A DNA stretch of 36,810 nt from Bacteroidales bacterium. Its GTDB lineage: Bacteria > Bacteroidota > Bacteroidia > Bacteroidales > P3. The stretch's first letter is position 1. Every line of letters begins with the position of its first letter. The stretch lies in NCBI GenBank assembly GCA_024400545.1, contig JAKSMO010000023.1, positions 1 to 36,810 on the forward strand. The letters run 5' to 3'. A model generated the notes under the pieces. It did no database searches. It saw only the letters and a list, made by a program, of their open reading frames with translations, and had not been told where the DNA came from. Of the stretch, positions 13,701 to 30,694 are shown piece by piece. Made by a program: the position numbers and the translations under genes.

Positions 13701-16210
13701 AAGACGAGCTCGCGGTTGAGGCTGTCAAGCACGATAGCAGGGCTATTGGTGGTAGCAACGCCGCTCTGTACAAAATAGTTGTACATGCGCATCATCTTAT
13801 TACCATTGTAGGTGTAGGTACCCCAAATGTAGTGGGGGTTGCTGTTCATAGTGGTAGAGGTAGAAGCGCTATTGTCCCAACAGAGGGGCACCATGTTGTT
13901 GTCCTGACTTTCGAAATTCTCGGCATAGTCGGTGGCTTTCTCGCAGGGGAGTTCATATACCTCGAGGTCGTCGAAGTAAGTAGCGTTGCCGTAGGAAGAA
14001 GTACCCTGGATAAGGATGTATTTGTTGCCATTGGCCTCGATGGGGAACTGGTAGTTATACCAGCCGGAAGCGGCTTCGGCGGGAGCAGCACCGTAGTGGC
14101 GGTGTACTTCGCCCAGGAAGGTAGCGCCAGTGGTGTCGTCGGCATTGGGCGAGAGCCACAGCTTGATGCCCTCCAAGGGATATGTGGCAGCGATCTGGCG
14201 ATAAACCCATACGGAAACGGCGTATTTGCCGGTACGGTCGATGGGGAGTCTCTGGGTGCTCATCCAGCTGGAGGTACCGTTGGCCTGATCCTGCAGGGTC
14301 ATGGCACGGGCGCCGGAGTGCTTGAAGGTGGTAGAAGTCTTGTAAGGCTGAGTCTTCACACCGGAGCCGGTGGCCTGGTAGAACCAACCCATGGTCCAGC
14401 AGTCGGGAATCTCGTCGCCGCTGAGGGCTTCGAAGTCTTCAACGAAGATGGGGGTGGCGGCAGTCTCGCAAGGAGTCTTGAAAGTGCCAGCAAACGACCA
14501 AGCGCTGGTGTCGCCCTCGCCGCAGATAGCGCGAACGTAAGCGAAATAGTTGGTGTTGGAGGTAAGACCGTAGATGGATTTGGTGTTGCTAGTGGCCGAA
14601 ACGATGCTCATGCTGTCGAGGTCGTTAACGGTGCCATAAGCCACCTGGAACTGGTTCTGGGTGGAGTCGCGCAGAGCCCAGGTAAGGGTTGCGGAGGTAG
14701 TGGCAACAGCTGCGGTGGTGGGAGCCTCGGTCTTCACGCAGGTGGGAACCTGGGTCAGCTCGATATCGTCGATATAGTTGTAGCTGTAGCTATAGTTGGC
14801 AGTGGAGATATTGCGGAAGGCAATATACTGGCCAGCACCGGTATAGTTGTTGAAATAAATTTCGTGATACTGGAAAGCGGTGGTGCTGGTGTTGATGATG
14901 GTGTCGATGGGAGTAAAGGTGCTCTCGTCGAGCAGGTTGCTCATCACACCCACGATGAGGGGATAGGTGGCGCTGGTCTGTTTCAGCCAGAAGCTGAGAA
15001 CGGTGTTGTTTACATTGTCAACACCGGGCATGGCCAGGATACCACGATAATACATGCGCAAGCTGTAGCTGCCGGAGTGGGCGTTGGAGGCGCCGTAATA
15101 GATCTGAGGACGAGTGGAGGCGGTCATAACCACATCTTCGTGAGCCAGCGTCCAGCAGTCGGGCATAACGCCGGTGGCTGCGGTGGTAGCGGTGGTAGCA
15201 TCGTCGAAGTTGTTGGTGTAAGGCAGGACTACATTGTCGCAAGGAGTAGTGAAAGTGATCACGCGAGCATCGCTAGTGTCGCCCTCGCCGCAAATACTAC
15301 GAACGGAAACAGTGTAGGTAGTGTTGGGTGAAAGCATAGGCAGTACGCCGGTTGCGATGGGGAATGCCATCTCGCTGATGCCCATCACAGCGGGAGAGAT
15401 AGTGGCATGCCACTGGGTCTCAGTGCCGCCGGGAACAATCTGGAAGCTGGCAGAATTGCTGCTCATGCTCACGATGTTCAAGCTCTGGGGCTTGGGGCAG
15501 GAGATAATGGGGCGAGTGAAGGTATAGTAGGTGTAGGCAGCGGGCCAGGTGCCGGATGCCCAGGTGGTGGAAGAGCCGCTGGTGAAGTGGGTTCCGTTGC
15601 CGGACTGGTCGATAATCCAACCGTCGGAAGAATTGACGCAGAGTCCTTTCTGGTGAGTGGTGTTGGGGGCAACAGCAGGGTAGTCGCCGAAAACAACATC
15701 GATGTTACCGTTGCTGTAGAGGTGCACCTGATAGCTGTAGAACTGGTTGCGGGTGGTGCTGTTGTAGGTGCCCAGGCAGAACTCAACCACCAACAGAGAG
15801 TCGCCAAAGTTTTGGTAACGAAGGTGGTGTGCGGCAACAAGAAAGTAACCGTCGCAACCCAGGAAGTTGATCTTGGGCGAGTTGGTGTTGGAATTGGAAG
15901 AACTGAAAGGTGTGGTGTAGGAACCAGTACCCGTTACAGTAGGACCAAGGCGGAGGTTACCGTCGGAGTTGACCGAGAACTGGGTGAACACGTCCTCGCC
16001 AAAGGGAAAACTGAAGCCAATGCTCTGCAAAGGAGAAGCATAGCTGTCGGCATCCGCAGTGTTGGAGACATCGGTGTAGGAGGTCAGCGTAATCCATTTG
16101 CTGGCATCCGTACCGGTGGTGAATGTGTAGTCGCCAAGCGACTGCGCATTCATGCCCATAGCCACCAACAAGGCGGCTACAAACATCAGACTTTGTACAA
16201 ATCTTTTCAT
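10703..16210 (-). CDS. Giant modular T9SS-secreted protein (FN3, jelly-roll, GEVED-like, InlB-like repeats)
   Basis: Read from the ATG at 16208-16210 the protein has 1835 residues; MKRFVQSLMFVAALLVAMG plus MNAQ is a good signal peptide, whereas an open frame extending upstream to 16471 would bury it. Modules in order: N-terminal beta domain to about 220; FN3 domains at about 225-315, 490-575, 920-1005 and 1160-1250; three MAM/jelly-roll-like modules starting near 323, 580 and 755, each opened by a Cys and an Y-x-x-x-F-(D/E) motif; a GEVED-like domain about 1030-1130 (VDWNNNLTFDSNE); a DSYGDGWNG module near 1275; InlB-like repeats 1370-1700; T9SS type A tail about 1765-1835 (VYLVQVGRQAARRVVVR). 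FN3 units share ICGEGDTS. Likely a cell-surface or secreted adhesin. No catalytic residues were recognised. It has its own promoter and terminator, so it is monocistronic. Confidence 0.9.
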   Translation of the reverse strand: MKRFVQSLMFVAALLVAMGMNAQSLGDYTFTTGTDASKWITLTSYTDVSNTADADSYASPLQSIGFSFPFGEDVFTQFSVNSDGNLRLGPTVTGTGSYTTPFSSSNSNTNSPKINFLGCDGYFLVAAHHLRYQNFGDSLLVVEFCLGTYNSTTRNQFYSYQVHLYSNGNIDVVFGDYPAVAPNTTHQKGLCVNSSDGWIIDQSGNGTHFTSGSSTTWASGTWPAAYTYYTFTRPIISCPKPQSLNIVSMSSNSASFQIVPGGTETQWHATISPAVMGISEMAFPIATGVLPMLSPNTTYTVSVRSICGEGDTSDARVITFTTPCDNVVLPYTNNFDDATTATTAATGVMPDCWTLAHEDVVMTASTRPQIYYGASNAHSGSYSLRMYYRGILAMPGVDNVNNTVLSFWLKQTSATYPLIVGVMSNLLDESTFTPIDTIINTSTTAFQYHEIYFNNYTGAGQYIAFRNISTANYSYSYNYIDDIELTQVPTCVKTEAPTTAAVATTSATLTWALRDSTQNQFQVAYGTVNDLDSMSIVSATSNTKSIYGLTSNTNYFAYVRAICGEGDTSAWSFAGTFKTPCETAATPIFVEDFEALSGDEIPDCWTMGWFYQATGSGVKTQPYKTSTTFKHSGARAMTLQDQANGTSSWMSTQRLPIDRTGKYAVSVWVYRQIAATYPLEGIKLWLSPNADDTTGATFLGEVHRHYGAAPAEAASGWYNYQFPIEANGNKYILIQGTSSYGNATYFDDLEVYELPCEKATDYAENFESQDNNMVPLCWDNSASTSTTMNSNPHYIWGTYTYNGNKMMRMYNYFVQSGVATTNSPAIVLDSLNRELVFDYSHHASSGAVYVRISNDHGDTFTDVDTLYHDGNGNSYSDPGNWSSRSIDLSSYAGDTIMIQFYTVANYGNGSVFIDNIMIREINNCPIPTDLAAQTESANSASLSWNGTAAEYVVAYGIGTNPELMDTIHVFDTTALISGLNAETTYNFFVRSVCGENMSYWSLPAQAFTGYCQPAPTSVDGQGITRLQFGMGSEVVDNTTRPTAAPYYGNYYNMVGAVAAGTIADVNITYQTGYTYGTIIWVDWNNNLTFDSNEVVYVGESSATNPTTLNATFSIPSTADTGYYRMRIAGSDSYYDSYFESFASAANANPCPASSYTIVHDYTLHVTAAPACSPVTGVIASNISNTSADITWSLLDNTQNSFVVAYAEVGDTNMTLVNASTNSITLNGLNAATTYQVMVKAVCGADDESIWSAATTFTTANCALEDMCYIKIEMIDSYGDGWNGGSLDVVDSALNTVVGTAQLSYGLADSIFVSVCPDRTYNLVWNTGSYDDEVSFNVYNSFNGLIASEVEPDGGLVASFVASCSEPEPIITYTVTTNTNDILMGTVLGGGIYNAGDTVTLTAMPSSNSHFVEWTDGDTNMTRTFVVTSDTTFTATFAFNPVTVTLSYNDTVMGYTVPAAGIYTFQVGDVMNAMAYANTGYHFVNYTVSAMGMTDTSSFNPIAQMVPAMLAGQHIYVVANFEANNYTLTVNSNNDDMGTVTGAGVYAYNTTATLTATPAFNHRFVQWNDGDTNAVRNVVVTGDATYTAYFALNPVTVNLTVNDFTMGTTNPAAGTYTYDVNTTVNAEAIANEGFRFIGWNVNVMGQTFTYTENPVSVTIPEMAAGLTIDITANFEAIPTYEVSFTNEASEYYTLEGAGFYQEGDDVTVTFTAIDVDFDAMAITFNGWYVNGELVSTDAVYTFVMGTENVSLTADVTVEPIIIGIDDVNADNITIFSRSNQIVVRGAESQNVRIFDAVGRLVAQRQANGEEVTFAVQHTGVYLVQVGRQAARRVVVR
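11191..12110 (-). repeat. Tandem 460-bp coding repeat (two units)
   Basis: Within the giant protein gene, two adjacent units of about 460 bp (153 residues) repeat with recognisable DNA identity, for instance CAAAGTTGGCA at 11650 against CGAAGTTGGCA at 11191. Each unit joins an InlB-like half (GTV-x-G-x-G-x-Y, F-x-x-W-x-DGDTN) to a second half containing PAAG-x-Y and ending in ANFEA. The repeat should be prone to unit gain or loss by recombination. Confidence 0.7.
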
Positions 16211-16365
16211 TTTGGATGATTTTTGTTTATAATTAAGTTGATAAAATTTTGTTCTAATGCTGGGAGATGGACAATATTTTGGGAGTGGTTGGAGCGCAGA
16301 GATAGTGTGCAAGTGGCTGAATATTATCAATATTCCTTTCGGAGGCAAATGTCCAATACAACCAA

Positions 16366-16398
16366 CAAAAATACGCATCTTTTTTATTCTATCAACAA
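16366..16398 (-). promoter_or_regulatory. Candidate promoter of the giant T9SS protein gene
   Basis: On the minus strand a TTG-containing -33 region (16393-16398) is followed after 19 bp by TATTTTTG (16366-16373), matching TAnnTTTG. This predicts a leader of roughly 150 nt before the ATG at 16210. Confidence 0.5.
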
Positions 16399-16471
16399 TA
16401 AAATCTGTCCCGCATCCAAAAAGTTGTGAACAATCAGTTGAAAACCATTTTTTATGATGTAGTCCAACCAA

Positions 16472-17017: not shown

Positions 17018-17141
17018 CCACGTTTTGACAGCAAAAAATCAACTTTTCTATTTTTGTACATTCAAAAAATTGGGGGGTTAACCCCCTCAATAAAAAAAAT
17101 GACAAAATACAATACTCGATAAATATGCTGTCAAAACGTGG
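17018..17141. repeat. 124-bp element bounded by perfect 15-bp inverted repeats
   Basis: CCACGTTTTGACAGC (17018-17032) and GCTGTCAAAACGTGG (17127-17141) are exact reverse complements. The AT-rich interior contains a loopless palindrome GGGGGTTAACCCCC at 17073-17086. No ORF fits inside. The layout resembles a MITE or a large hairpin; a target-site duplication is not clear. Confidence 0.65.
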
Positions 17142-17326: not shown

Positions 17327-17357
17327 TTTGTCGGTTGAAGAAAAATGCGTAATTTTG
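17327..17357 (+). promoter_or_regulatory. Bacteroidetes-type promoter of the three-gene operon
   Basis: TTTG at 17327-17330 is followed after a 19-bp spacer by TAATTTTG at 17350-17357, which fits the -33 TTTG / -7 TAnnTTTG pattern. A second TAATTTTG at 17323-17330 could act as an alternative -7. The predicted start site leaves a long leader of about 250 nt before the ATG at 17615. Confidence 0.6.
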
Positions 17358-17471: not shown

Positions 17472-17600
17472 ATGAAAACATCAATATTCGCTCGTTTTTC
17501 TTGTTTTGTGGTTGCCCATATGGCGGCAGAAGGCATGGGAAGATCCCATCTTTTTGCTACGTTGGCAAGCGGATTTGACGCGTCTGTATCGAAAGGTTGA
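17472..17600 (+). other. Leader ORF (42 codons) / probable conserved leader element
   Basis: ATG at 17472 opens MKTSIFARFSCFVVAHMAAE and the frame closes at TGA 17598-17600, 14 bp before the first structural gene. Inside, ATGGGA-AGA-TCCCAT (17535-17549) is a perfect hairpin followed by CTTTTT, like a weak intrinsic terminator. From memory, peptide strings from either strand of this kind of DNA (GRSHLFATLA, or in reverse KRWDLPMPSAA) recur in doubtful small Bacteroidales ORFs, which would suggest a dispersed conserved nucleic-acid element rather than a protein. I could not verify that recollection. Confidence 0.45.
17535..17555 (+). terminator. Attenuator-like hairpin in the leader
   Basis: Six-bp stem ATGGGA/TCCCAT with loop AGA, then C and five Ts. 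It is short, so any termination would be partial; its position inside a leader ORF is what makes attenuation worth considering. Confidence 0.35.
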
Positions 17601-17614
17601 AAAATTACAACAGT

Positions 17615-19621
17615 ATGTGTAAAATTGTCAAAATATCCCTTGTGGCCTTGCTTTTGGGCGTGATGCTCCCCTGGTGGGGGGCGCCGGCTTCGGCTCAGTC
17701 CAGCTGGAAGGAGCGTTGGCGCGAACATCGCGAGGCCGACCCCTTGGTGCTCACCGGCACCCTGGGAGCGAGCATCAGCGACCAGTGGTCCAACAGCGAG
17801 TACTCATCGTCGCCGTTGGCTCTGGCAGCCTATGCCAATCTTAACTTTAAGCTTTATGGCTTCAACATCCCACTCAATTTCAACTTCCTGGATGTGTCGG
17901 CCAACAATCTGCTTGGCGATTTGAAAGGGGCCATTCCCCGTCCCAATATCTCGTTAGGCATCACGCCTACGTTGGGCAAATGGAAGTTCCATGCCGGCTA
18001 CAGCGCGCTGTCGTTTTCTAACTACATCTACTCGGGCATGCAGTTTATCGGTGGCGGTATCGAGTATGGCGGCACGTTTCATTTTGGTGCCTTTGCCGGT
18101 TTGCTCAACCGTCCCACCCGTTTCCGCGAGCTCGACGAGCGCAGCGCACTTCAGCAATATGCCGACTCGCTGCTGGGCCTGAATACCTACCAGACGCAAA
18201 CACCTCAGTTCCGCCGCGATGCTATTGGCGCCAAGATAGGTGTGGGTAGCGATCGCAATTTCTTCGACCTTATGTTCCTCAAGGCCAAGGACGATCCCAA
18301 CTCGCTGCCGCTGTACATACCTTATGCCGACTCCACCATTCTGCGCGACTCGCTGGTGGTGCCCAAGGAGAACCTGGCTATAGGCGCTGTGGCCCATTTC
18401 TCTATCGGCTCGTGGTTTAGCTTTGCGCTGAACGGAGCCGCCTCGGTATTCACCCCCAACACACTGATCGACACCCTCGATTTTGAAAACCTCTTGTCGT
18501 TTGTGGGCACCGACCTTGATATTATTGACCAAGTGACCGATATTGCCGATAAGGTGAGCACCATCATGCCCATCAACGGCAACACCCAGATACGTTTTGC
18601 CGGCGATGCTTCGGCCAACTTAAAGTTCAAATACTTCTCGCTGGGTGGCCAGTACCGTATTGTTGAGTCCGACTACACCTCGCTGGGTGTGTATTCCACG
18701 CAGCAAAACCTGAAGAGCCTGGGCGTTAACGGAGGTCTGCGCCTCTTTAAGAATGCCCTCATCATCAATGGCGCGGGCTATGGTCAGCGCGACAACCTCA
18801 ACGGCAAGCAGCTGTTCACCAACTCGGTCAACACCTACAACCTGAATGCCACCGCCAACATTGGCGCGGCATTCACTTTCACTGCTATGGGCAATATGAT
18901 TGTGCAGCAGCAGGACGACGGCCTGCTGGCTGTGGATCCCGCGCTCCGCATCGACCAGACTACGGTCAACCTCAACGCCACTCCCTCCTACACATTCTCT
19001 AAAGTCAACGACCACACGGTCAGCCTCACTTTCTCGCACGTTTCCACCACCAACAACAACGAGAATCTGACTTCGGATATCGATAGCAAGACACTCTCGC
19101 TGGGAGGCGCTTACGAGCTGGATATGGAGGCCACAGGCCTTTCGGTCAACGGCTCGTACGACTATTCCGCATCGCGCAGCAGCTATAGCGACTACAATGC
19201 CAACACCTTTGGTTTGGGCGCACGCTACAAGCTGCTCAACAACGACATTCACACCATTTCTATTTCGGCCAATGGCTCGTATGGTATCAACAACGTGCTC
19301 AGCCAGGGAGACCCCAACGATGTGACCAGTATGGAAAAACGTATGGGAGTGGCCAAAAACAGCAACTACGAAGTGGTTGAGATGTCGGCCCATTCTTTTG
19401 ATATTTCCGCATCCCTCAGCTGGACGGCTAAGACTGGCCATTCTGCCATGCTCAGAGCCTCTTTGCGCAACTACTCCAACCGAGAGCTCATTGCCCAGCG
19501 CGTGTCCACCACACTCAACGCCAACGTGAGCCTTTCCTACTCCTACTCTTTCGGCAAAAAACTCATCGAACGCAAGTCGTCCGACAGCACCCCCGTGCTG
19601 AACAACGCGGATGAGAAATAA
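17615..19621 (+). CDS. Outer-membrane beta-barrel-like protein (668 aa)
   Basis: The ATG at 17615 gives MCKIVKISLVALLLGVMLPW and a cleavage site after PASAQ near residue 28; a TTG at 17597 would add six residues and overlaps the leader ORF. The mature protein is a series of alternating, Asn/Gly-rich amphipathic strands (LTGTLGASISDQW, SLGITPTLGKWKFHAGY, ANVSLSYSYSFGKK), typical of a large beta-barrel. No plug domain, TonB box or T9SS tail is visible. The family is not recognised by name. It lies 20 bp ahead of the 2900-residue gene and is the first gene of the operon, so it may be the membrane channel or anchor for its two exported partners. That role is inference. Confidence 0.75.
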   Translation: MCKIVKISLVALLLGVMLPWWGAPASAQSSWKERWREHREADPLVLTGTLGASISDQWSNSEYSSSPLALAAYANLNFKLYGFNIPLNFNFLDVSANNLLGDLKGAIPRPNISLGITPTLGKWKFHAGYSALSFSNYIYSGMQFIGGGIEYGGTFHFGAFAGLLNRPTRFRELDERSALQQYADSLLGLNTYQTQTPQFRRDAIGAKIGVGSDRNFFDLMFLKAKDDPNSLPLYIPYADSTILRDSLVVPKENLAIGAVAHFSIGSWFSFALNGAASVFTPNTLIDTLDFENLLSFVGTDLDIIDQVTDIADKVSTIMPINGNTQIRFAGDASANLKFKYFSLGGQYRIVESDYTSLGVYSTQQNLKSLGVNGGLRLFKNALIINGAGYGQRDNLNGKQLFTNSVNTYNLNATANIGAAFTFTAMGNMIVQQQDDGLLAVDPALRIDQTTVNLNATPSYTFSKVNDHTVSLTFSHVSTTNNNENLTSDIDSKTLSLGGAYELDMEATGLSVNGSYDYSASRSSYSDYNANTFGLGARYKLLNNDIHTISISANGSYGINNVLSQGDPNDVTSMEKRMGVAKNSNYEVVEMSAHSFDISASLSWTAKTGHSAMLRASLRNYSNRELIAQRVSTTLNANVSLSYSYSFGKKLIERKSSDSTPVLNNADEK

Positions 19622-19641
19622 CTTTTTAATAGAAAAAGAAT

Positions 19642-22600
19642 ATGAATATGAAATATTATCGATTATTAGTATTAACCCTGCTCGTCGCCTTGGGCCATGC
19701 GCTGCATGCCCAATCGGATGTTACGGTAGTGCTTAACAAGACTACCCGGGCCATGAATAGCGCCATGCCCACCAGTGTGCTGAGCTATGTGAACGGCCCT
19801 ATGGAGTATGTATCGCTCAACTTGATCAACAATACAAGCAGCTCCAAGCAGGTGTATCTTTCGTTCCAGATGACCACCTCCTCAGTCATCAATGGTCAGG
19901 CCGGCGTGTATATCGGCACCCGCGAGAACGAGTCGTTCTCACAGGTATCCCATCCCATCACTTTGGCACCGGGCTTGAATCGTATGACCAACGACGACTT
20001 CCTTACCCATTTCAGTGGCCGTCTCACCACCAATTTCAATGCCAACAACGTCAACCTCAATGCGCTTACACTGCCTGAGGGACAGTATCAGATGTGCGTG
20101 CAGGTATTCGACCAGTCGTCCAATCCCGTTTCTACCGACAACTGCCTCACTTTTGATGTGTGCTACAGCGGTTCGGCTCCCGAATTTTCGGCTCCCATGA
20201 TTACCGAACCCGTCAGAATTACGTTGTCGGGGCGTAGAACCAGTGCCTCACTCAACAGCTCGACCCCTGTTTATGGCTATATCATCCCCACTTCGGTGCT
20301 TACCTTTGCGTGGACGGGCGTTATCAGCAACTGTTTCCAGGCCAACGCATTCGACTACACCCTTAAGTTTGTGGAGGTTTACCCCAACCAGAATCCCGCT
20401 TACGCCATTGCCAACAACCCCGTGCTGGCGGCCATCAACTGCGGCCACCGCACCCTCTACAACTACCGCTATCTGGTTGACCGCAATATTCAGTTCGACA
20501 GCGGCCATGTGTATGCCATGCAGGTTATCGCCACACCTTCGAGCAGCGATATGATTGCCAATTTGAGCAACGACGGTATGAGCGAGTTCCGCGTGTTTGA
20601 ATGGCGCGGACCCAAAACTACCACCACCACGCGTCCGCTTCGTCCGAGCAACACCATTAACCGTACTCCCACCAACAGCTCTACCTCCACTACCGACGAT
20701 CAGGCCCAGGTGCTGGCCGGACTGCATGCTCCGGCACTCAACACCCCCGGTCATGGCGTAGTGTGCGACGCTAGCAAAAACCTGGAGGTGAAATTCCTCA
20801 CCGCTTATCACGACTCGATTGTCAACACTTCCTATAATATTAATTTGTATGAATATGTGGGCGACTATGAGGCCACGCTGGCCCGTATGCCCCTCCGCAC
20901 GTCCACCATCACCACCGAACCGCTGACCGACCATAGTCAGGTAGAGCTCAAATCTATCCCCGACGATTGGACCGCCGTGATGGAGCATGGCCTGCAGTAT
21001 CTGCTCGTGCTGTCGTCGTCGGTGGACTACAAATACAAAGAAACCCAAACCACCACCACCATTACCTACATTGATGGCTACCCCTCCACCAACCGTAGCC
21101 AAAACACGGTGATAAAGGTTGCCAACACCACGTTCAGCGACACCCTTACCTTTGCATGGGGTCCCGACACGGGCCTCTTTGTCCGTGTGATCCCCGCCCA
21201 GTTTGTGCGCCCCACCAACGAGAGCACCAAGGACTGGAACGACTCCAGCGATTGGAATGAGATTCCGAAGGTGGTTTACGACAAAGGCTTCCGTTTCTCG
21301 TGGGTGGCTGCCAAGAATGTGTCGAACCTGGACACTGTGCTCTACGACCTGTATGTGTGCAACCTCAAGCAGGGCAAAACACGCGAGGCCGCTATGGGCG
21401 ACACCCTGTATGTGAAACGCGACATCAGCGAAACCCACTATATCGACGATAAGTTGCGCGACAGCCTCAAGGTGGATAAGAAATATTTGGCTTATATCGT
21501 TACCCGTGTGAAAAACGGCGAAGGCCGCTACAACATGCTCAACGAAGGCCGTTCCTTGTTCTCCACTTTCCAACTGGAGAAAGAGACTGAGGTTTCGGGC
21601 GCACTCGACAGCATGGTGTCGTGTTTCCCCGATGCCATCAAAGAGCTCAGCACCGAGGTTATCACCCCCAAGGCCGACTCGCTTATCAACAACCGTGTGC
21701 GCATCCATCTCGGCCAGTTTGATATGATTATGACCGAGGCCAAGCTTGATGCCTCCAAGAAGACCTACAAGGGTTCCGGCTTTATTGTATGGAAGCCCGT
21801 GTTCGGCTTTGGCGGCGTAGGTATCCGTGTTGATTTCGACTCCATCAAGATCAACAAAGACTATGCCGTACTTTCCGGCGGTGCCAAGGGCTCGGGCGAG
21901 AACAACGAGAGCTACATCAAAATCGGTATCGGCAATAAATATACCGACAAGGTGGACCAGGCTCTTGCCTTTGGCCTTGATAAGCTCAAAGATGTGGGTG
22001 CTGCCAAAGAATGGGTGGAACTCTCCAACAAGCTGGCCAACCCCATTAGCGAGATTATCCGCAGCTCGATTGAGGGCGACGTTAATGTGGGCGTAACCTC
22101 GCTGCCTATTGCCATCCCCGACGAGGTGTTCAACGGTCAGCACCAGTATATGCGTGCCACTATCAACGACATGTATTTCACCCCCACCACCGCATTGATG
22201 AACCTGGTGTGTGTGTTCAATGTGCCTGAGGAGAATATCTACATCCCCCTCATGGCCACCAATATCTGTATGACTCCCGAGGGCCTCTTCTCGCTCCAGG
22301 GCGACTCCAATGCCGTAATGTCGCTCAGCCTGGCTGCCGACTATGAGATTCCCTTGCCCGACGGATATACCCTCCGCCTGAAGAAACCCACTAAGCTGGG
22401 CAGCCCCTCCGACGGTACCTATCTCAGCTTCACCAACAACCAGTTCCGCGATTTGAGTCTGGGCGCCGAGCTCGACTTTGGCGGCAAAGAACGCCCCGGC
22501 AACCAGCTGCTGGCTGTGGATATGAAGAACAACGGCAATGTCAACCCCAACAAGCCCGTGCAGGCTCGTTTCAATGTAACTATTAAGGAATGGACCGACT

Positions 22601-25600
22601 GGATTGCCTCTATTGCGATGGATCCCTTCACCGTTGAGGGTTCTACCGACTGGACTTTTGTTCCCACAGGCAACGGCATGTTCTACGACCACTCCTCCAA
22701 GGAGAATCCTGCTGCGATAAGCTTCCCCAAAGGCTATTTTGATGCCGACAGTACCGGCACCGGCAATACCGATCAGGCTGCCAAGACGGGCACCTCGTCC
22801 GATGCCAAGACCCAGACGGCTACCTCTGCCGACTCCAAAGCTGGCGACTCCAAGGCTGACGGCGACAAAGATAAGAAGGATAAGGACAAACCCAAGCCCC
22901 ATCCCGAATGGCAGGGCTTCTATCTCGACGAGTTCAGCGTGCTGATGCCCTCCAGCATCGCCACCACCTTCTCCGACCTCAACGACGAGGTGGATAAGAA
23001 AGACTCGATCTTTACTTATAAATATGGTGTCAACGGCGAGCTGTCAGACTCCACTGTCTATGAAGTGAAAGACCGCATGGCCTTCGGCGCACAACATCTG
23101 ATTATCGACGAAGACGGTTTCTCGACCGATATCTACGGCCGTTTCAATTTCAAGGCTGAGACCAAGAAGGCCGGCGGCTGGATGTTCGGCCTCGACAGCG
23201 CCCGCGTGCGCTTCACCAAGAGCAACTTCACCCACGGCTCGGTGAGCGGTCAGATCGGTCTGCCCCTCTTTACCGGCAAGTTCGACTATAGCTGCGTTAT
23301 CAATACCGATAGCCTTGAGTTTGCTATCAAGCACACCGACTCTACCATGAAGCTCGACCTCTGGTTGGCTTACTTCAAGCTCGACAAGACTTCGCACTTT
23401 ACTATCAATCACAATTTCGACGAAGAGAAGACCAAGGTTGACCTCACAATCAACGGTTTGGTGAATATCGATTTCAAAAACCTCGGCATCGATGTCAACT
23501 TTGCCGGCGTGAAGGTGGAAGACATGCACATGCGCAACTTCCGCGACCCCAAAGCCGAGAAGGACGAGACTATCTCGTTTGACGGCGAAGGCGACGAGGA
23601 TGATTTCGACTTCAGCATCGGTAAATGGAGCAAGGCTTCGCCCCAACACACGATTGGTGGCGCACCTTCTACCCGATATGGCGTGCCGGGTGCCATGCCC
23701 GACGCAGCACCCCTCGAGGCTCCCAGTGCTCCCGCTTTGTGGAGTGGCTCGCTGGGTGGCTTCACCTTTACGGTTGACAAGATCACTCCCATCATGTCGG
23801 CCAGCAAAGATAAACCCGGCTACCAGGATATCGGTATCAATTTCGTGGGCGGTGTAAGCCTTGGCATTGGCGGCTCCGACGATGGCGGCAAGGCTCGTTC
23901 CGTTTCGGCTTCTGCCGGTTTCGAAATCTACTGCCCCGTGAATATGAAGACCTGGGATATCGGCAAGCCTGGCGGCAACCTCGACTCTATCCGCATCACT
24001 ACCGATATGGATATGTTCAAGGTGGACGGTATGCTGGGCCATTACAACGAGCGCAACAACAAGGATGCCGGCAACGGCTGGTACGGTTCGCTCAAGGTAA
24101 CTGTAATGGATCAGGTGGAAGTGAAGATGGCTGCCGGTTTTGGTAGCGCCGACGATGATAAAGGCAGCTACGACTGGTGGTACTTTGAAGGTGCCGCAGT
24201 GTTCAATCCCGGTATTCCCGTCGGCCCCATCAACTTCTCCGGTTTTGGTGGCGGTTTTGCCTACAATATGAAACTTAAGGATGCCAGCATCCTCTCCAAA
24301 CCTACACACGAACTTATCAACGGCACTGGCACGTCGTTTACCGACAAGATGGTGTCGTCCGGTATGGCCTTCGTGCCCCAGCGCAAGAGCTGGCAGGCAA
24401 AGGCCGGTATCCAGCTTGCTTTGGCCGACCCCAAGACCCTCAACGGCGACGCTATGTTTACCCTTGCCATGGAGAAAGGCCATTTCTCGCGTGTGCTTAT
24501 TGATATCAATGCCTATATCCTCACAGGCTTTGTGCCTGGTGCCGACGAAGCAACTGCCACTTCGGCCGAGAGCAAGAACGAAAGCCCCCTGATGACGGCT
24601 CGTGCCATTATCGGATATGAGCAGACTGAGGAGCAAGGCCATTTCCGTTTCAGCCTGCTGGCCAAGAGCGAGGTGGACCTTTCCAACTTGATTAAAGGCG
24701 CTGCCGAAAAGTTCCCCGAAGTGAAGTCGTCGATCGACATCAGTTTTGGCGGTGACGATGTGGATAAAACCACCAATGTGGTGAACACCACCAGCCAGTC
24801 CACAAAGGATAGAAATTCTTCTAAGAATAACAAATTTGGCTGGAGCGCTAAAATGATTATACCTATCGACTTTGAAGTTACCCACTACCGTCAGGACCGT
24901 GCCGAAGAGCGCTCTTCCAACGGCCAGCTGGTCAAAAAGGCTAAGAAGTCGGGCGATGTTGACTGGTATTTTGCCCTGGGTAAGCCCGAGGCCGATAAGC
25001 GCTTGACCTTCAGCACTGACTTGGATTTGGCTGTGATCAAGAGTGCGTCAACATTTACCTTCTATCTTATCACAGGTAACAGTTTTGACTACGAACTGCC
25101 TCCCATCGATGCCGATGTGGCCAAGTTCCTTTTTGACGATGACGACCCCAACAAGCAGGTGCAGACCAGCGAGGGTAAGATTAACGATGCCCGTGAGGCA
25201 GCAGATAAATACAAGATGGGCGCTTTTGCCGATGCCGGCGGCTTTGCCATGGGCATGACTTATCGCTCCGAACTGGGCTTCGACGCCTTCCTCTACCTCA
25301 ACGCTACTGCCGCTCTTGGTTTTGATGTCGGACTCTTTGATGTCAACGGTCAGAGCTGTGCGGGCTATGACACCATTGGTAAGAACAACTTCTATGCTAC
25401 CGGCCAGATTTACGCCATGCTCAAAGGTGATGTGGGCCTTAGCCTGAATCTTGGATTCTGGAAGGGTAAGATCTCGCTCTTTAGTGCCGGTGTGGGTGCG
25501 CTGCTCAAAGGCGGTGGCCCCAACCCCTCGTGGGCTTATGGCCTGCTGCGTTTCAAGGTATCGGCTTTGGGCGGTCTTGTCAAGCTCAATACTTCTTGTG

Positions 25601-28344
25601 ATTTCTCGGTGGGCGATGTATGTCTGCCCGGTGCCGGCGATCCTTTGGCCAATGTGAAATTGTTTGAAACGATCAACCCCTCTTTCGCCAGCATGTCCGA
25701 TGCCAAGGAGACTACCGATAGGACTTCGCCCTACTCTACGGGTAATGTCACTTCCAATATGCCCTGGAGCCATGGTGCCGACGCATACAATTCCTACCGT
25801 CGCAATGAGGTGGTGCTTGTAACACCCACTACTGATGGCCGCGACTACGATGCTCGTTGCTTTGCCTTTGTGCTTGACAAATCCTTGTGCGACCATACGA
25901 GATATTACGCCAGAAAAGGTGGCTGGTCGAGTCAGGGCACTGCTAACACTCGCTTCACATTCCTCGACGACGATCCCAATGCTTTCGCATTTGAAGATGA
26001 AACAGGCGGTTTCGCACCAAGTAAAATCCACAAATTCCAATTTGTTGGTCGCGCGTTTGAGAAACGTAAGCTGACTACTATTGCGAAATACCAGTCGAGA
26101 GACTCTATTTATAATTTATCAACCTGCAAACCCACTGGCGGTAGAATGTCCGCTACAAGTTACTATTGGGGTCTCCCGCTGTACGATGGTCAGCCCAAGC
26201 CCTGGCATCAGGATACTGTGTTCTACATTCGTACCGATGCTGCTTCGGAGAACCTCGACAACCAGGTTATCTTCACTTGGCCTTACAACGGTGATCCTTT
26301 TGTGCCGTACAATGAGGTGAAAGACCACGCCTATATCTTCCTGTTCCAGGATCGTGGCGATTTGCTTGACCCAGCCCAGCTGCGCAGTGAGGGTAAGGAA
26401 CTCAAGGTATTCCTTGTCAATCAGTCGCAGAGTCTGACCGAGGGTACCGAGTGCACCTATACTTATCATGGCAATACTCGCACTCCCTATATTGATGTCA
26501 ACATCAAGCCTGAAAACCTCAAGCATCGCAACTCCGACGGCACCTTCGCACCCTGCTACATTGCATTTATCAAGATTAAGACCGATGAGTATAATCGCGA
26601 GCTGGAGGCAGCACAGCGCCAGGCGCAGAAATATGTTATCGAAAATCAGTTCGTGCAGAACCGTCGCAAGTCGAGCACTTCCGTATTAGGCGCAATCCTT
26701 GACGGTTTGGAGACCCTTGCCGGCGGTAGCGCCGAGTCGGGCAATGTGGACCTAGCTTTCTACCAGAGTGCCGCTCAGCGTCAGGCCACCGACGAGGATG
26801 TTGCCTCGCATGGTGAGGACACCCTGATGTCGTATAAACGTGTGCAGGAGTCGGCCATGCAGATCTGCAAGCGTATAGGCACGCCGATCTACACCCTCTA
26901 CTTCCGTCTTGATCCCGAGTATGAATCGTATAGTGAGATATTTAATGCTATGGTGAAAGACCAGCAGAAAAACCGTGTGGATATTTCGGGCTCGTATAGC
27001 TACAACTCGGATGAAGAGTTGGGTACGATCACTATGGGTGACTACTACAAGCAGAACAATCCTACTTTTGCCAATATGGCCCACATCTTCTCGGAGTACG
27101 ATCCGCAGGATCCCCATATTTATAGAACAACACTCAAACAGCCTCCTATCGCCACTATTACCATCAATGGTATGCGCACCATTAGCCGTAGTTACAACGA
27201 TTACATTCCCGGTTGGTTGGGTCGTAGTGAGGAGTTGGCCTACCAGTTGCATGAACAAAACACCTCTTTCCAAACCTATTTCCGCGATAGAAATGCAGGT
27301 GTGTTGAATAATAGTTTTGTTTCTACAGGAAAGAGCTTCAACAAGCTTGAGTATGCTATGACGCCTGAGAATCGTTCAGTATATGCGGCCACTAGTTATA
27401 CCCGAATGAACGCCAACACCATTATGGACCAGCTTAATAGATATGGTCTGTATTCCGACGACTCCTATAACTGGGGTGACCATGTGGTAGAAGGAACGCC
27501 CCGCTCGAAGGTGCGCGACTGGTTCTTCCCCAACATTCTGCAGGTCACCACTACCGGTGTGCGTCGTGTTGACAGCACTTTCTTCAAGTCGAGCGAGAAT
27601 CTGCATCCTGCCGATTTCCGCACCACGTCGCCGACTATTAAAGTGCTCGACTACACTGCCATGGCTACTTCCAAGAACAATAAGCTGATCTTCTCCTACT
27701 TCCAAGATATTGTGAGTTATGCGCTGTGGTATGAGAATCAAAGCTCCGGAACACTTGACAAATTGGAGAAAACTTATACCTCGTCCGATAAGATTAACGA
27801 TATCTTGACTGTCAACTCTGCGCCTTTCACCGTACGCAAGAGCTCTATGCTGGCAGTGAAGGCCGAGGCACGCTATTGTGAGTCTAAACTTAACAGTACC
27901 AACTCGTATTATCGAAAGAACTACTTTGGATGGTATAAGCATTGGCCTCGTACGGGCAATCCTAAGCATACCAAGTTCAATACCAAATCGGGCTGGTCGT
28001 TGGCGGATTCTCCGTGGTTCACTTATTCCGGCTTCACTGGTAGCAGCTACACCGGCTATTCGAGTAACGGAGGCAACTCAACGCAACGCTATATTGTGGA
28101 TATCTATTACATAACCCAAGGTTCAAATTCCAGCGCATTCGTTACCTACTGTCTTGACCTTTGCGACAAGATTAAGTACAACGCTAATAAAGCCACAATG
28201 CCCATTGCCTACTATCAGCACAAGGTTAGTCCGTCCTATAACAACGGAAGCGGTCTAAAATACTTGCAGATATCTTTCATGCAGGCTTGGACCTTCGATA
28301 CCGATAAAGGCATGACACTTAGTTTTGACAAGAACGACTTTTAG
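19642..28344 (+). CDS. Giant secreted protein with TANFOR-like N-terminal domain (2900 aa)
   Basis: MNMKYYRLLVLTLLVALGHA leads to a signal cleavage after HAQ near residue 24; the ATG at 19648 is an equally possible start. Residues about 30-175 match my recollection of the Bacteroidales TANFOR domain: VSLNLINNTSSSKQVYLS, ITLAPG, and LPEGQYQMCVQVFDQ. Low-complexity linkers occur at about 326-360 (Thr/Ser/Pro-rich) and 1034-1088 (Ser/Thr/Lys/Asp-rich), splitting the protein into an N-terminal arm, a 1090-2000 strand-rich Gly/Asp core with barrel-like patches (NFSGFGGGFAYNMKLKD), and a C-terminal 850-residue part rich in Tyr, Asn and Arg. There is no T9SS tail; the end is GMTLSFDKNDF. Function unknown. 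It sits between a barrel protein and an FN3 protein in one operon, so a surface machine or scaffold is plausible. Confidence 0.75.
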   Translation: MNMKYYRLLVLTLLVALGHALHAQSDVTVVLNKTTRAMNSAMPTSVLSYVNGPMEYVSLNLINNTSSSKQVYLSFQMTTSSVINGQAGVYIGTRENESFSQVSHPITLAPGLNRMTNDDFLTHFSGRLTTNFNANNVNLNALTLPEGQYQMCVQVFDQSSNPVSTDNCLTFDVCYSGSAPEFSAPMITEPVRITLSGRRTSASLNSSTPVYGYIIPTSVLTFAWTGVISNCFQANAFDYTLKFVEVYPNQNPAYAIANNPVLAAINCGHRTLYNYRYLVDRNIQFDSGHVYAMQVIATPSSSDMIANLSNDGMSEFRVFEWRGPKTTTTTRPLRPSNTINRTPTNSSTSTTDDQAQVLAGLHAPALNTPGHGVVCDASKNLEVKFLTAYHDSIVNTSYNINLYEYVGDYEATLARMPLRTSTITTEPLTDHSQVELKSIPDDWTAVMEHGLQYLLVLSSSVDYKYKETQTTTTITYIDGYPSTNRSQNTVIKVANTTFSDTLTFAWGPDTGLFVRVIPAQFVRPTNESTKDWNDSSDWNEIPKVVYDKGFRFSWVAAKNVSNLDTVLYDLYVCNLKQGKTREAAMGDTLYVKRDISETHYIDDKLRDSLKVDKKYLAYIVTRVKNGEGRYNMLNEGRSLFSTFQLEKETEVSGALDSMVSCFPDAIKELSTEVITPKADSLINNRVRIHLGQFDMIMTEAKLDASKKTYKGSGFIVWKPVFGFGGVGIRVDFDSIKINKDYAVLSGGAKGSGENNESYIKIGIGNKYTDKVDQALAFGLDKLKDVGAAKEWVELSNKLANPISEIIRSSIEGDVNVGVTSLPIAIPDEVFNGQHQYMRATINDMYFTPTTALMNLVCVFNVPEENIYIPLMATNICMTPEGLFSLQGDSNAVMSLSLAADYEIPLPDGYTLRLKKPTKLGSPSDGTYLSFTNNQFRDLSLGAELDFGGKERPGNQLLAVDMKNNGNVNPNKPVQARFNVTIKEWTDWIASIAMDPFTVEGSTDWTFVPTGNGMFYDHSSKENPAAISFPKGYFDADSTGTGNTDQAAKTGTSSDAKTQTATSADSKAGDSKADGDKDKKDKDKPKPHPEWQGFYLDEFSVLMPSSIATTFSDLNDEVDKKDSIFTYKYGVNGELSDSTVYEVKDRMAFGAQHLIIDEDGFSTDIYGRFNFKAETKKAGGWMFGLDSARVRFTKSNFTHGSVSGQIGLPLFTGKFDYSCVINTDSLEFAIKHTDSTMKLDLWLAYFKLDKTSHFTINHNFDEEKTKVDLTINGLVNIDFKNLGIDVNFAGVKVEDMHMRNFRDPKAEKDETISFDGEGDEDDFDFSIGKWSKASPQHTIGGAPSTRYGVPGAMPDAAPLEAPSAPALWSGSLGGFTFTVDKITPIMSASKDKPGYQDIGINFVGGVSLGIGGSDDGGKARSVSASAGFEIYCPVNMKTWDIGKPGGNLDSIRITTDMDMFKVDGMLGHYNERNNKDAGNGWYGSLKVTVMDQVEVKMAAGFGSADDDKGSYDWWYFEGAAVFNPGIPVGPINFSGFGGGFAYNMKLKDASILSKPTHELINGTGTSFTDKMVSSGMAFVPQRKSWQAKAGIQLALADPKTLNGDAMFTLAMEKGHFSRVLIDINAYILTGFVPGADEATATSAESKNESPLMTARAIIGYEQTEEQGHFRFSLLAKSEVDLSNLIKGAAEKFPEVKSSIDISFGGDDVDKTTNVVNTTSQSTKDRNSSKNNKFGWSAKMIIPIDFEVTHYRQDRAEERSSNGQLVKKAKKSGDVDWYFALGKPEADKRLTFSTDLDLAVIKSASTFTFYLITGNSFDYELPPIDADVAKFLFDDDDPNKQVQTSEGKINDAREAADKYKMGAFADAGGFAMGMTYRSELGFDAFLYLNATAALGFDVGLFDVNGQSCAGYDTIGKNNFYATGQIYAMLKGDVGLSLNLGFWKGKISLFSAGVGALLKGGGPNPSWAYGLLRFKVSALGGLVKLNTSCDFSVGDVCLPGAGDPLANVKLFETINPSFASMSDAKETTDRTSPYSTGNVTSNMPWSHGADAYNSYRRNEVVLVTPTTDGRDYDARCFAFVLDKSLCDHTRYYARKGGWSSQGTANTRFTFLDDDPNAFAFEDETGGFAPSKIHKFQFVGRAFEKRKLTTIAKYQSRDSIYNLSTCKPTGGRMSATSYYWGLPLYDGQPKPWHQDTVFYIRTDAASENLDNQVIFTWPYNGDPFVPYNEVKDHAYIFLFQDRGDLLDPAQLRSEGKELKVFLVNQSQSLTEGTECTYTYHGNTRTPYIDVNIKPENLKHRNSDGTFAPCYIAFIKIKTDEYNRELEAAQRQAQKYVIENQFVQNRRKSSTSVLGAILDGLETLAGGSAESGNVDLAFYQSAAQRQATDEDVASHGEDTLMSYKRVQESAMQICKRIGTPIYTLYFRLDPEYESYSEIFNAMVKDQQKNRVDISGSYSYNSDEELGTITMGDYYKQNNPTFANMAHIFSEYDPQDPHIYRTTLKQPPIATITINGMRTISRSYNDYIPGWLGRSEELAYQLHEQNTSFQTYFRDRNAGVLNNSFVSTGKSFNKLEYAMTPENRSVYAATSYTRMNANTIMDQLNRYGLYSDDSYNWGDHVVEGTPRSKVRDWFFPNILQVTTTGVRRVDSTFFKSSENLHPADFRTTSPTIKVLDYTAMATSKNNKLIFSYFQDIVSYALWYENQSSGTLDKLEKTYTSSDKINDILTVNSAPFTVRKSSMLAVKAEARYCESKLNSTNSYYRKNYFGWYKHWPRTGNPKHTKFNTKSGWSLADSPWFTYSGFTGSSYTGYSSNGGNSTQRYIVDIYYITQGSNSSAFVTYCLDLCDKIKYNANKATMPIAYYQHKVSPSYNNGSGLKYLQISFMQAWTFDTDKGMTLSFDKNDF

Positions 28345-28372
28345 TAATTAATCTTGAATCAATGTAATTAAC

Positions 28373-30622
28373 ATGATGAAACATATTTTTCGCATATTTA
28401 GTATGGTTGTCTGCCTAGGGTCTTCCTTGGCCGCTATGGCACAGACCCCAGTGGTCGATACCACATCTTATGGCAGAAGGCCCGATTCCCTTTCCGACCA
28501 GATCTTTTATGTCCAAATGGTGGCTCGTAACTATGGCGATAGTATCGTGCTCCGTTGGGCTCCTGAAGACGCTGGTGTGTGGCGTCTGGGCACTTACGAG
28601 GGCTACATTATTGAGCGTTTGGGTGGCACCAAGCTGTATGAGGATAACGCCGCTATCCTCACCCTCAACGGGGGCAAACCCATCAAACCTCTTACCCTCG
28701 AACAAATTCAGGTCCGTTACTCATCCGACGACTTGCATGCCGGTGCGTTGGCCCAGATGCTTTATGGCCCATCGATGGTAGATACCATGGGTAGCACCAC
28801 CACCGAGGGTTTCTTGGGCAACATCTTCCACCAGTATCAGGAGCAAGGCCAGCGCCAGCTGATGGTTTATATCCTTAGCGATATGCGCGCCGATCTTGCA
28901 CAGGCTGGAGGTCTCCGTTTTGTGGACCGCGATATCGAGCGTGGTCAGCGTTACGAATACTCCATCCATCCTATTGTTGACACCTCATTCATCAATGTGG
29001 CCGGCTCTTCGCTCCTAGTGTCGGGCAAAGCCTTTAAGCGCACCGCCGATTTTGAAGTGCCCACCATCAATATCGAGCAGATTGATGCCAGCCGCGCCGT
29101 CCTCTATTGGGGACGCAACAGCCTTACGGGCTATTTTATTGAGTGCAGTATCGACGGTGGTGCATGGACCAAGGTCAACGAAACCCCGATCTTTGCCACC
29201 AACCCCGACGAGGAAACCCGCCAGGTGTATGGCGAAGAACTTTCCAAACTTATGAAAGATAATGTGGTGTATATCGATTCGCTGAAATTGGGCCACACCT
29301 ATCGTTTCCGTGTGAAAGGTTACGACGCCTTTGCCGACTATTCCGACTTCAACACCATGGAGCATGCCTTCAAAATGATTGACATTGTGCCTCCTTCATC
29401 GCCCATTATTCTCGCTACCACTCCTTCTGCCGACAATTCCACCTGTACTCTCCAGTGGGTCAAAGATACGCTTGAGGGCGATTTCCGTGGCTATGTTGTC
29501 ACCTTCTCGTTCTCCTCCCAGGGCCCTTGGCACAACGTGAGCAACCTGCTCGACCCCAAGACCACTTCCTATACCGACTATAATGCCGGTGAGCGTGGTC
29601 CGGGCTATTATCGCATCTTTGCTTCCGACACTGCTGGCAATGCTTCGTTCAGTCTGGCTGCCGGCAACAATATTGCCGACCTTGTGGCACCCCATGCTCC
29701 CACCAATCTGCGTGGTCAGAGCGACTTTATCTTCGACACCATTCCCACTCCTGCTGGCGACTCGCTGGCTATTTCCACCAATGGCCAGATCTATCTTGAG
29801 TGGGATCCCGTTAACGACTTCGACCTTTTGGGTTACCGTGTATTCTACGCCAATCAGCGCGACCACGACTATATCGAGGCATCCCATAAGCCTACCACCA
29901 ACCTCTTCTTCTTCGACACTGTCAACATCAAAACCATCACTCCCTACATCTATTATTATGTTATCGCCGTTGACCAGCGTTACAACTACTCCATCCCTTC
30001 GGACACTATTGCCATCCGCACCCCCGACATTGTGCCTCCCGGCGTGTGTGTGCTCCTCGACATGCACCAAACCGACGACAGCGTTTATATCACTTGGACA
30101 AAGAGCACGTCCGAAGATGTGCAGCAGTATATAGTCTATCGTCGTCAAAAGGGTTCTAACCGCTGGGTGCACAACAAAACTATCCCTGCCGCCCAGCTTG
30201 AGGGTAAGACGGAGATTAACTTTGTTGACTGTCCGCCGGCCAACAACCGCGCATATCAGTATTGCATTGAGGCTTTGGATAGCGCCATGCTCTCAAGCGG
30301 ACGTTTTGGTTATGTGAATGTCTATTCCAAAGGTCCTCGCACTGCCGAGGTTAAGATGAACCTCAATGCCAAGCGCGACAAGAAGACCAACCGTGTAAAC
30401 CTGAATTGGAAGTATAACTATCGTGGCGAGTTGGCTCATTATGGCGTCATCTACCGTGCCATCGATGGCGGTGCCTATACGGCCATTGCCTCCTTTAATG
30501 AAGGTACCTTCGAGTATGTCGATACCCAGGCTCCTGCCGGTTCAACACTCAAGTATTACATCGTCCTCAAACTTGGCAACGGCTGCACATCCAACCCATC
30601 CAACACAGTCAGTGTCAAATAG
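28373..30622 (+). CDS. Secreted multi-FN3 protein (749 aa)
   Basis: MMKHIFRIFSMVVCLGSSLA followed by AMAQ is a signal peptide with cleavage near residue 24. The mature protein is largely made of fibronectin type III-like modules, at about 220-340, 340-440, 440-570, 570-660 and 660-749, each with the W in strand B (AVLYWGR, CTLQWVKD, IYLEWDP, VYITWTKS, VNLNWKYN) and the YxxYR-like strand F. The N-terminal part (50-215) also resembles a looser FN3 unit. It has no T9SS tail, lipobox or catalytic motif. It follows the giant gene by 28 bp and is closed by a strong terminator, making it the last gene of the operon. A binding or adaptor role for the giant protein is inferred from position only. Confidence 0.8.
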   Translation: MMKHIFRIFSMVVCLGSSLAAMAQTPVVDTTSYGRRPDSLSDQIFYVQMVARNYGDSIVLRWAPEDAGVWRLGTYEGYIIERLGGTKLYEDNAAILTLNGGKPIKPLTLEQIQVRYSSDDLHAGALAQMLYGPSMVDTMGSTTTEGFLGNIFHQYQEQGQRQLMVYILSDMRADLAQAGGLRFVDRDIERGQRYEYSIHPIVDTSFINVAGSSLLVSGKAFKRTADFEVPTINIEQIDASRAVLYWGRNSLTGYFIECSIDGGAWTKVNETPIFATNPDEETRQVYGEELSKLMKDNVVYIDSLKLGHTYRFRVKGYDAFADYSDFNTMEHAFKMIDIVPPSSPIILATTPSADNSTCTLQWVKDTLEGDFRGYVVTFSFSSQGPWHNVSNLLDPKTTSYTDYNAGERGPGYYRIFASDTAGNASFSLAAGNNIADLVAPHAPTNLRGQSDFIFDTIPTPAGDSLAISTNGQIYLEWDPVNDFDLLGYRVFYANQRDHDYIEASHKPTTNLFFFDTVNIKTITPYIYYYVIAVDQRYNYSIPSDTIAIRTPDIVPPGVCVLLDMHQTDDSVYITWTKSTSEDVQQYIVYRRQKGSNRWVHNKTIPAAQLEGKTEINFVDCPPANNRAYQYCIEALDSAMLSSGRFGYVNVYSKGPRTAEVKMNLNAKRDKKTNRVNLNWKYNYRGELAHYGVIYRAIDGGAYTAIASFNEGTFEYVDTQAPAGSTLKYYIVLKLGNGCTSNPSNTVSVK

Positions 30623-30648
30623 TGCTGCCTTGTATTACACAACAATAA

Positions 30649-30678
30649 AAAAGGGCCGACCACATGGTCGGCCCTTTT
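30649..30678. terminator. Bidirectional intrinsic terminator
   Basis: A 14-bp perfect stem AAAAGGGCCGACCA/TGGTCGGCCCTTTT with a two-base centre lies between the convergent ends of the FN3 gene (30622) and the DUF389 gene (30695). A-run and T-run on either side allow termination on both strands. Confidence 0.88.
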
Positions 30679-30694
30679 CTGTTTGCCATAGTTC

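What the first reader, a model, noticed from the sequence alone, without database searches (positions are those of the whole stretch)
17615..30622. Three-gene operon for an uncharacterised surface system around a 2900-residue TANFOR-like protein
Seen: beta-barrel-like protein, giant secreted protein and multi-FN3 secreted protein, spaced by 20 and 28 bp, with one promoter at 17327 and one strong terminator at 30649. None carries a T9SS tail although two nearby proteins do, so their export or anchoring route differs. Known from memory: TANFOR domains head very long Bacteroidales proteins of unknown function. Inference: the barrel anchors or exports the giant protein and the FN3 protein binds it.
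Basis: partly seen in the sequence, partly recalled or inferred. Interest (0 to 1): 0.75.

Follow-up and report, generated by a model that had tools for sequence, protein, structure and literature searches.

The report
Barrel, giant TANFOR protein, FN3 operon
This operon encodes a conserved cell-surface system of Bacteroidota bacteria in which a relative of known toxin-carrier (TANFOR) proteins is fused to a second giant module and sits beside a predicted outer-membrane barrel and an FN3 protein.

Summary
In detail: three same-strand genes (668, 2,900, 749 aa; gaps 20 and 28 bp) between a Bacteroides-type promoter match and the region's strongest terminator. In 28 related loci with giants of 2,500 aa or more, the barrel directly precedes the giant in 26 of 26 and FN3 directly follows in 26 of 27 that could be judged.

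The giant is a fusion. Residues ~22-180 are homologous to TANFOR (profile-profile probability 97%; 32 controls at most 1.1%), though the curated TANFOR model misses them. Residues ~818-2017 are a "core" without a known family; in Flavobacteriia and Chitinophagia it is a separate gene near TANFOR genes. In 296 Bacteroidota genomes, 27 of 32 with core have TANFOR (13 of 264 without), and 32 of 32 have the barrel and SprA of the T9SS.

Best reading: a TANFOR surface complex whose barrel is its outer-membrane partner, working like PorP/SprF shuttles but outside that family. Barrel fold, export route and function are inferred. No Pfam toxin or T9SS tail was found in 28 giant C-termini. Structure prediction never ran.

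The parts
17327..17357 (+). promoter-like site TTTG-N19-TAATTTTG
   Evidence: pattern search: 2 in window against 0.43 expected, 8 of 100 shuffles reach 2; consensus recalled
17615..19621 (+). predicted outer-membrane beta-barrel protein, 668 aa, with signal peptide
   Evidence: relatives directly upstream of fused giants in 26 of 26 loci; no known family; weak alternation z 2.6
19642..28344 (+). giant secreted protein, 2,900 aa: TANFOR-like N-module fused to core module and variable C-terminal third
   Evidence: module borders
19705..20181 (+). TANFOR-homologous region, residues about 22-180
   Evidence: hhalign 97.1%, E 4.7e-11, 32 controls at most 1.1%; TANFOR profile hits 19771-20166, E 3.3e-8
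22093..25692 (+). core module, residues 818-2017; a separate gene in Flavobacteriia and Chitinophagia
   Evidence: alternating hydrophobic pattern z 5.4
25969..28341 (+). C-terminal part, residues 2110-2900; its last ~600 residues vary fast; no Pfam domain
28373..30622 (+). FN3-domain secreted protein, 749 aa
   Evidence: fn3 E 1.1e-12; directly downstream of fused giants in 26 of 27 loci
30647..30680 (.). terminator-like 15-pair stem, bidirectional

Best explanation
The operon encodes the fused form of a Bacteroidota TANFOR surface system. Shown: the giant joins a TANFOR-homologous N-module to a core module that is a separate gene elsewhere; barrel, core, TANFOR and FN3 genes travel together, in genomes that have the T9SS translocon gene sprA. 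Inferred: all three proteins enter the periplasm by Sec. The barrel sits in the outer membrane as the partner of TANFOR proteins and takes over and holds the giant as it is exported with help of the T9SS, as PorP/SprF barrels do for their type B cargo, but recognising the TANFOR end instead of a C-terminal tail. The core forms a long beta-rich body, the variable C-terminal third faces outward, and the FN3 protein joins the complex. In this fused branch the product is more likely a contact or adhesion structure than a swapping toxin.
For: Synteny 26 of 26 (barrel) and 26 of 27 (FN3) in fused loci. TANFOR homology. Core a separate gene beside FN3 and near TANFOR elsewhere. In 296 genomes core and TANFOR co-occur, 27 of 32 against 13 of 264; barrel in 32 of 32 core and 40 of 40 TANFOR genomes against 87 of 264 and 79 of 256 of the rest; 35 of 36 core places have a barrel within 25 kb; 26 of 57 TANFOR places have the barrel directly upstream on the same strand, including loci without core. 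SprA in 32 of 32 core genomes against 197 of 264. Analogy: barrels gene-linked to their T9SS cargo (PMC12618676 abstract and one passage; PMC9143113 abstract).
Against: No fold, complex, localisation or expression evidence. No T9SS tail on giant or FN3, so T9SS use is indirect, and SprA is common anyway (229 of 296). The barrel also occurs in 87 of 264 genomes without core, so it is not exclusive, and 31 of 57 TANFOR places lack it directly upstream. Profiles for barrel and TANFOR were built from core loci, and the tests ignore kinship. The last 150 residues of the window giant match no other giant at E 1e-3, which a toxin reading would also predict.
Confidence: 0.45

Rival explanations
1. The giant is itself a polymorphic toxin: TANFOR and core deliver an unrecognised C-terminal effector domain in the last few hundred residues.
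For: TANFOR proteins carry C-terminal toxins (PMC7073777); the C-terminal third is the least conserved part on average; the last 150 residues of 29 giants (window and 28 relatives) fall into 8 clusters, the window's alone; a Pfam scan also misses toxins in 5 of 6 separate TANFOR proteins.
Against: No Pfam domain in 28 of 28 C-termini; window and L052 align through residue ~2860 in one stretch at 53%; over the last 600 residues 22 of 29 giants form one similarity group; the next gene is FN3, not a small immunity-like gene, in 26 of 27.
Confidence: 0.2
2. The barrel is a self-sufficient exporter of the giant, in the manner of two-partner secretion, independent of the T9SS.
For: Barrel gene directly before the giant in 26 of 26 fused loci and before TANFOR in 26 of 57 places; no T9SS tail on the giant.
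Against: Core and TANFOR occur only in SprA-bearing genomes of the sample, 32 of 32 and 40 of 40; no POTRA or other exporter domain was found in the barrel.
Confidence: 0.15
3. The core is a periplasmic or outer-membrane groove protein (AsmA/TamB-like) and the operon serves envelope transport, not surface display.
For: Strong alternating hydrophobic pattern over residues 818-2017 (z 5.4).
Against: No AsmA or TamB hit and no PDB hit of the core profile; tie to TANFOR, and in split loci to SprB-repeat, T9SS-tailed proteins.
Confidence: 0.1

Closest known systems
TANFOR polymorphic toxins (TIGR02542; Jana, Salomon and Bosis 2020, PMC7073777)
   Same: Homologous N-terminal region in a very large secreted protein; FN3 and T9SS-linked company; genome has the T9SS translocon gene.
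   Different: Below the curated model; fused to the core module; no toxin or immunity gene detected; a barrel directly upstream, which that paper's text does not mention.
PorP/SprF-like shuttle barrels and type B CTD adhesins of the T9SS (PMC12618676, PMC9143113)
   Same: A predicted barrel gene-linked to giant surface cargo; proposed role as partner or anchor.
   Different: No sequence relation found, barrel about twice as long (PorP/SprF ~300 aa is recalled), and the cargo has no CTD.
SprB-repeat, T9SS-tailed proteins beside TANFOR genes
   Same: Encoded in the same clusters as core, FN3 and TANFOR in Chitinophaga and Flavobacteriia.
   Different: Not part of the window's operon.

Membership tests
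TANFOR polymorphic toxins | hit to TIGR02542 above its cut-off | tested here: not met
   no match in the genome at E<=10; none for P0002 at E<=0.1
TANFOR polymorphic toxins | homology of the N-terminal domain | tested here: met
   hhalign 97.1%, controls at most 1.1%; profile hit E 3.3e-8
TANFOR polymorphic toxins | C-terminal toxin domain with downstream immunity gene | tested here: inconclusive
   0 of 28 C-termini with a Pfam domain, but 1 of 6 separate TANFOR proteins only; next gene is FN3
TANFOR polymorphic toxins | Fn3 neighbour and T9SS in the genome | tested here: met
   fn3 in P0003; SprA in G000
T9SS cargo | C-terminal sorting domain | tested here: not met
   none in P0001-P0003; none in 28 giant C-termini by Pfam
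PorP/SprF shuttles | sequence membership | tested here: not met
   0 of 35 members match such a model at E<=0.01
PorP/SprF shuttles | gene linkage with cognate cargo | tested here: met
   26 of 26 fused loci
PorP/SprF shuttles | physical binding and need for cargo secretion | not testable with these tools
   no complex prediction or experiment available
Outer-membrane beta-barrels | barrel fold | tested here: inconclusive
   structure job never accepted; weak alternation z 2.6 and 16 of 60 relatives ending in Phe against 57 of 638 other ORFs

The most novel reading that the evidence does not exclude
Barrel, core and FN3 are a dedicated outer-membrane delivery or display apparatus for TANFOR proteins: a branch of the T9SS in which cargo is recognised through an N-terminal TANFOR domain by its own barrel, without a C-terminal sorting domain. 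The window shows the form in which cargo and apparatus are fused into one 2,900-residue chain.
Probability: 0.33. Interest if true: 0.85.

Novelty: new variant of a known kind. Interest (0 to 1): 0.6.

Why it matters
The one paper found on TANFOR proteins leaves open how they leave the cell. The linked families give a concrete candidate: a partner barrel and a core protein, neither with a model in Pfam or NCBIfam that I could find, plus an FN3 protein. The fused form and the barrel-beside-TANFOR pattern make a direct test possible in cultivable hosts, and success would define an export route without the usual C-terminal signal.

Tried and rejected
Considered and rejected: (1) chance ORFs: rejected by homologues and synteny. 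(2) Barrel as a known porin, TonB receptor, PorV or PorP: no such hit; PDB hits of P0001 to cytochrome P450 (E 0.00085) vanish with the profile and are taken as chance. (3) Core as internal repeats or as kin of the barrel: best internal match 11.9%, core against barrel 0.6%. (4) The T9SS-tailed genes on the minus strand as part of the system: no gene of that size stands in their place in the maps of near relatives, which was not tested further.

Led nowhere: PDB sequence searches; literature searches beyond PMC7073777 for TANFOR; structure prediction (queue full each time).

Limits: local HMMs for barrel, FN3, core and N-module were built from the window and loci. L068 appears to be the same contig as G057 (same length and giant size), so one of the 28 loci is not independent. 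The loci are the best 80 of 440 confirmed. Barrel places were copied from the listed rows, leaving out the weaker listed rows; itself left some unlisted. Stretches end at about 10 kb flanks, so absence there is not proof. Signal peptides were judged by eye and by a crude pattern (16 of 26 barrels, 16 of 28 giants, 17 of 28 FN3 proteins; lipobox in 0 of 82), with start codons not curated.
Full report
Observation. A TTTG-N19-TAATTTTG promoter match lies at 17327-17357 (a second match at 17024; 0.43 expected, 8 of 100 shuffles reach two) and a 15-pair stem at 30647-30680. Barrel and giant have no believable Pfam or NCBIfam relative; PDB gives none for the giant and only weak P450 hits for the barrel that I take as chance. 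The third gene has an fn3 domain. The genome is an unnamed assembly of 2.64 Mb in 105 contigs. The nearest named relative of the core is Candidatus Colimorpha merdihippi (L052; 69% over 915 columns of the tree alignment).

Distribution near home. In 101 genomes of the same family the barrel query hits 19, FN3 29 and the giant 24. Three other same-genus genomes carry the three genes side by side (G057, G080, G085); a fourth (G086) has the barrel followed by a 637-aa protein made of the N-module and an end like that of the FN3 protein. At least 20 listed same-genus genomes hit none of the three, so the system is patchy. Giants are 3,015 aa in G057 and 1,896 and 1,883 aa in G080 and G085, where BLAST finds only about 200 residues of the core. 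In most other genera of the family examined, a ~1,500 aa protein matching residues ~820-2060 sits beside an FN3 gene, with the barrel next to it or elsewhere.

Wider relatives. A scan of the GTDB genome collection with the conserved core segment gave 520 pattern matches, 440 confirmed, the best 80 kept, from rumen and gut Bacteroidales, Prevotella, Tenacibaculum, Flagellimonas, Chitinophaga, Saprospiraceae, Spirosoma, Bergeyella and others. Maps are, counts. Giants >=2,500 aa (28 loci): barrel directly upstream in 26 of 26 and FN3 next in 26 of 27 with room; 28 of 28 hit the N-module profile. 1,700-2,500 aa (8 loci): FN3 next in 5 of 7, barrel upstream in 3 of 6, N-module in 3 of 8. 1,400-1,700 aa (39 loci): FN3 next in 36 of 38, barrel directly upstream in 2 of 36, a barrel anywhere in the stretch in 5 of 39, another TANFOR-like gene in 8 of 39. 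Under 1,400 aa (5 loci): FN3 next in 2 of 5.

TANFOR link. Seven TANFOR candidates near core genes were scanned: 5 hit TIGR02542 (4 at E<0.001, all under the curated cut-off) and 2 do not. A neighbouring protein in each of two loci is T9SS-tailed, one of them with SprB repeats. The window's N-module profile (A2) against these seven proteins (A3) gives 97.1%, E 4.7e-11; 32 control profiles give at most 1.1%. The A3 profile also hits the window at 19771-20166, E 3.3e-8. So the giant is TANFOR and core in one chain. Long-N and short-N core proteins need two changes on the tree (quick trees; the careful one did not finish; several long branches).

Phylum sample. In the same 296 genomes: core in 32, TANFOR in 40, SprA in 229, barrel in 119. 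Core with TANFOR 27 of 32 against 13 of 264 (p 1.3e-23); core with SprA 32 of 32 against 197 of 264 (p 2.2e-4). Core with barrel 32 of 32 against 87 of 264 (p 1.2e-14); TANFOR with barrel 40 of 40 against 79 of 256 (p 1.4e-18). These p-values ignore kinship, the sample includes the window's own genome, and the profiles came from core loci. By place: 28 of 36 core places have TANFOR within 25 kb and 35 of 36 a barrel; 26 of 57 TANFOR places have the barrel directly upstream on the same strand and 44 of 57 within 25 kb. Sixteen stretches read out show the layouts: core-FN3-secreted proteins-barrel-TANFOR-small gene; barrel-core-FN3-TANFOR; barrel-TANFOR-FN3 without core (2 stretches); barrel-[TANFOR+core]-FN3 (4 stretches). 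That the barrel stays with TANFOR even without core points to TANFOR as its partner (inference).

Toxin question. The C-terminal 750 residues of 28 fused giants show no Pfam domain at E<=0.01, T9SS tail included. Of 6 separate TANFOR proteins scanned, 1 has a toxin domain (AHH nuclease), so this control is weak. Over the last 600 residues, 22 of 29 giants form one similarity group, but by the last 150 residues there are 8 clusters and the window stands alone. In 12 pairs of giants the least conserved block lies in residues 2301-2900 in 7 pairs, ties in one and lies elsewhere in 4; window and L052 still align in one stretch to residue 2861. I favour a fast-evolving exposed region over a swapped effector, but the far end leaves the toxin rival open.

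Mechanism. The first gene fits an outer-membrane barrel only loosely: signal peptide, C-terminal Phe in 16 of 60 relatives (57 of 638 in other ORFs) and mild alternation. The analogy is PorP/SprF, barrels gene-linked to their type B cargo and needed for its secretion or anchoring (PMC12618676: outline with abstract and one passage seen; PMC9143113: abstract and outline seen). Sequence membership was tested and not met and the cargo has no CTD, so 'works like' is all I claim. No structure could be predicted: each of 33 requests met a full queue.

Known or new. TANFOR proteins and their Fn3, SprB and T9SS-tail neighbours are known (PMC7073777: parts 1-3 of 6 read and term passages from the whole text, supplements not seen). 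In that paper's main text 'barrel' and 'porin' do not occur, and its neighbourhood test used known domains. 'TANFOR domain' and 'T_forsyth_147' each find only this paper in the held open-access library. As far as these searches reach, the core family, the barrel as TANFOR partner and the fused form are undescribed.

Noticed in passing
L075, L076, L077, L079, L095: In Prevotella-like loci the unit looks longer: a Big_2 or similar secreted protein before the barrel (3 scanned, one with a weak T9SS tail under the cut-off) and two further secreted, lipoprotein-like genes after FN3.
   Followed up: partly
L035:6117-8030: G086 has a 637-aa protein that joins the N-module directly to an end like that of the FN3 protein, with no core.
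   Followed up: no
L132, L134, L135, L136, L138, L147: Barrels in these split-type loci are 810-818 aa, some 150-250 residues longer than in the fused loci, with a different C-terminal end.
   Followed up: no
L078 and L095: Giants nearly identical over residues ~2010-2900 (0.95-1.00) but 0.56-0.90 over most of the rest, as if a block had recombined.
   Followed up: no
window 8035-10371 (-): C10 (streptopain-type) peptidase with Spi inhibitor propeptide, FN3, InlB-type repeats and a T9SS tail.
   Followed up: no
window 10703-16471 (-): 1,922-aa protein with FN3, GEVED, InlB-type repeats and DUF6383, transcribed away from the operon.
   Followed up: no
window 17472-17600 (+): A 42-codon ORF lies between the promoter match and the barrel gene (read by eye).
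   Followed up: no
   Followed up: no
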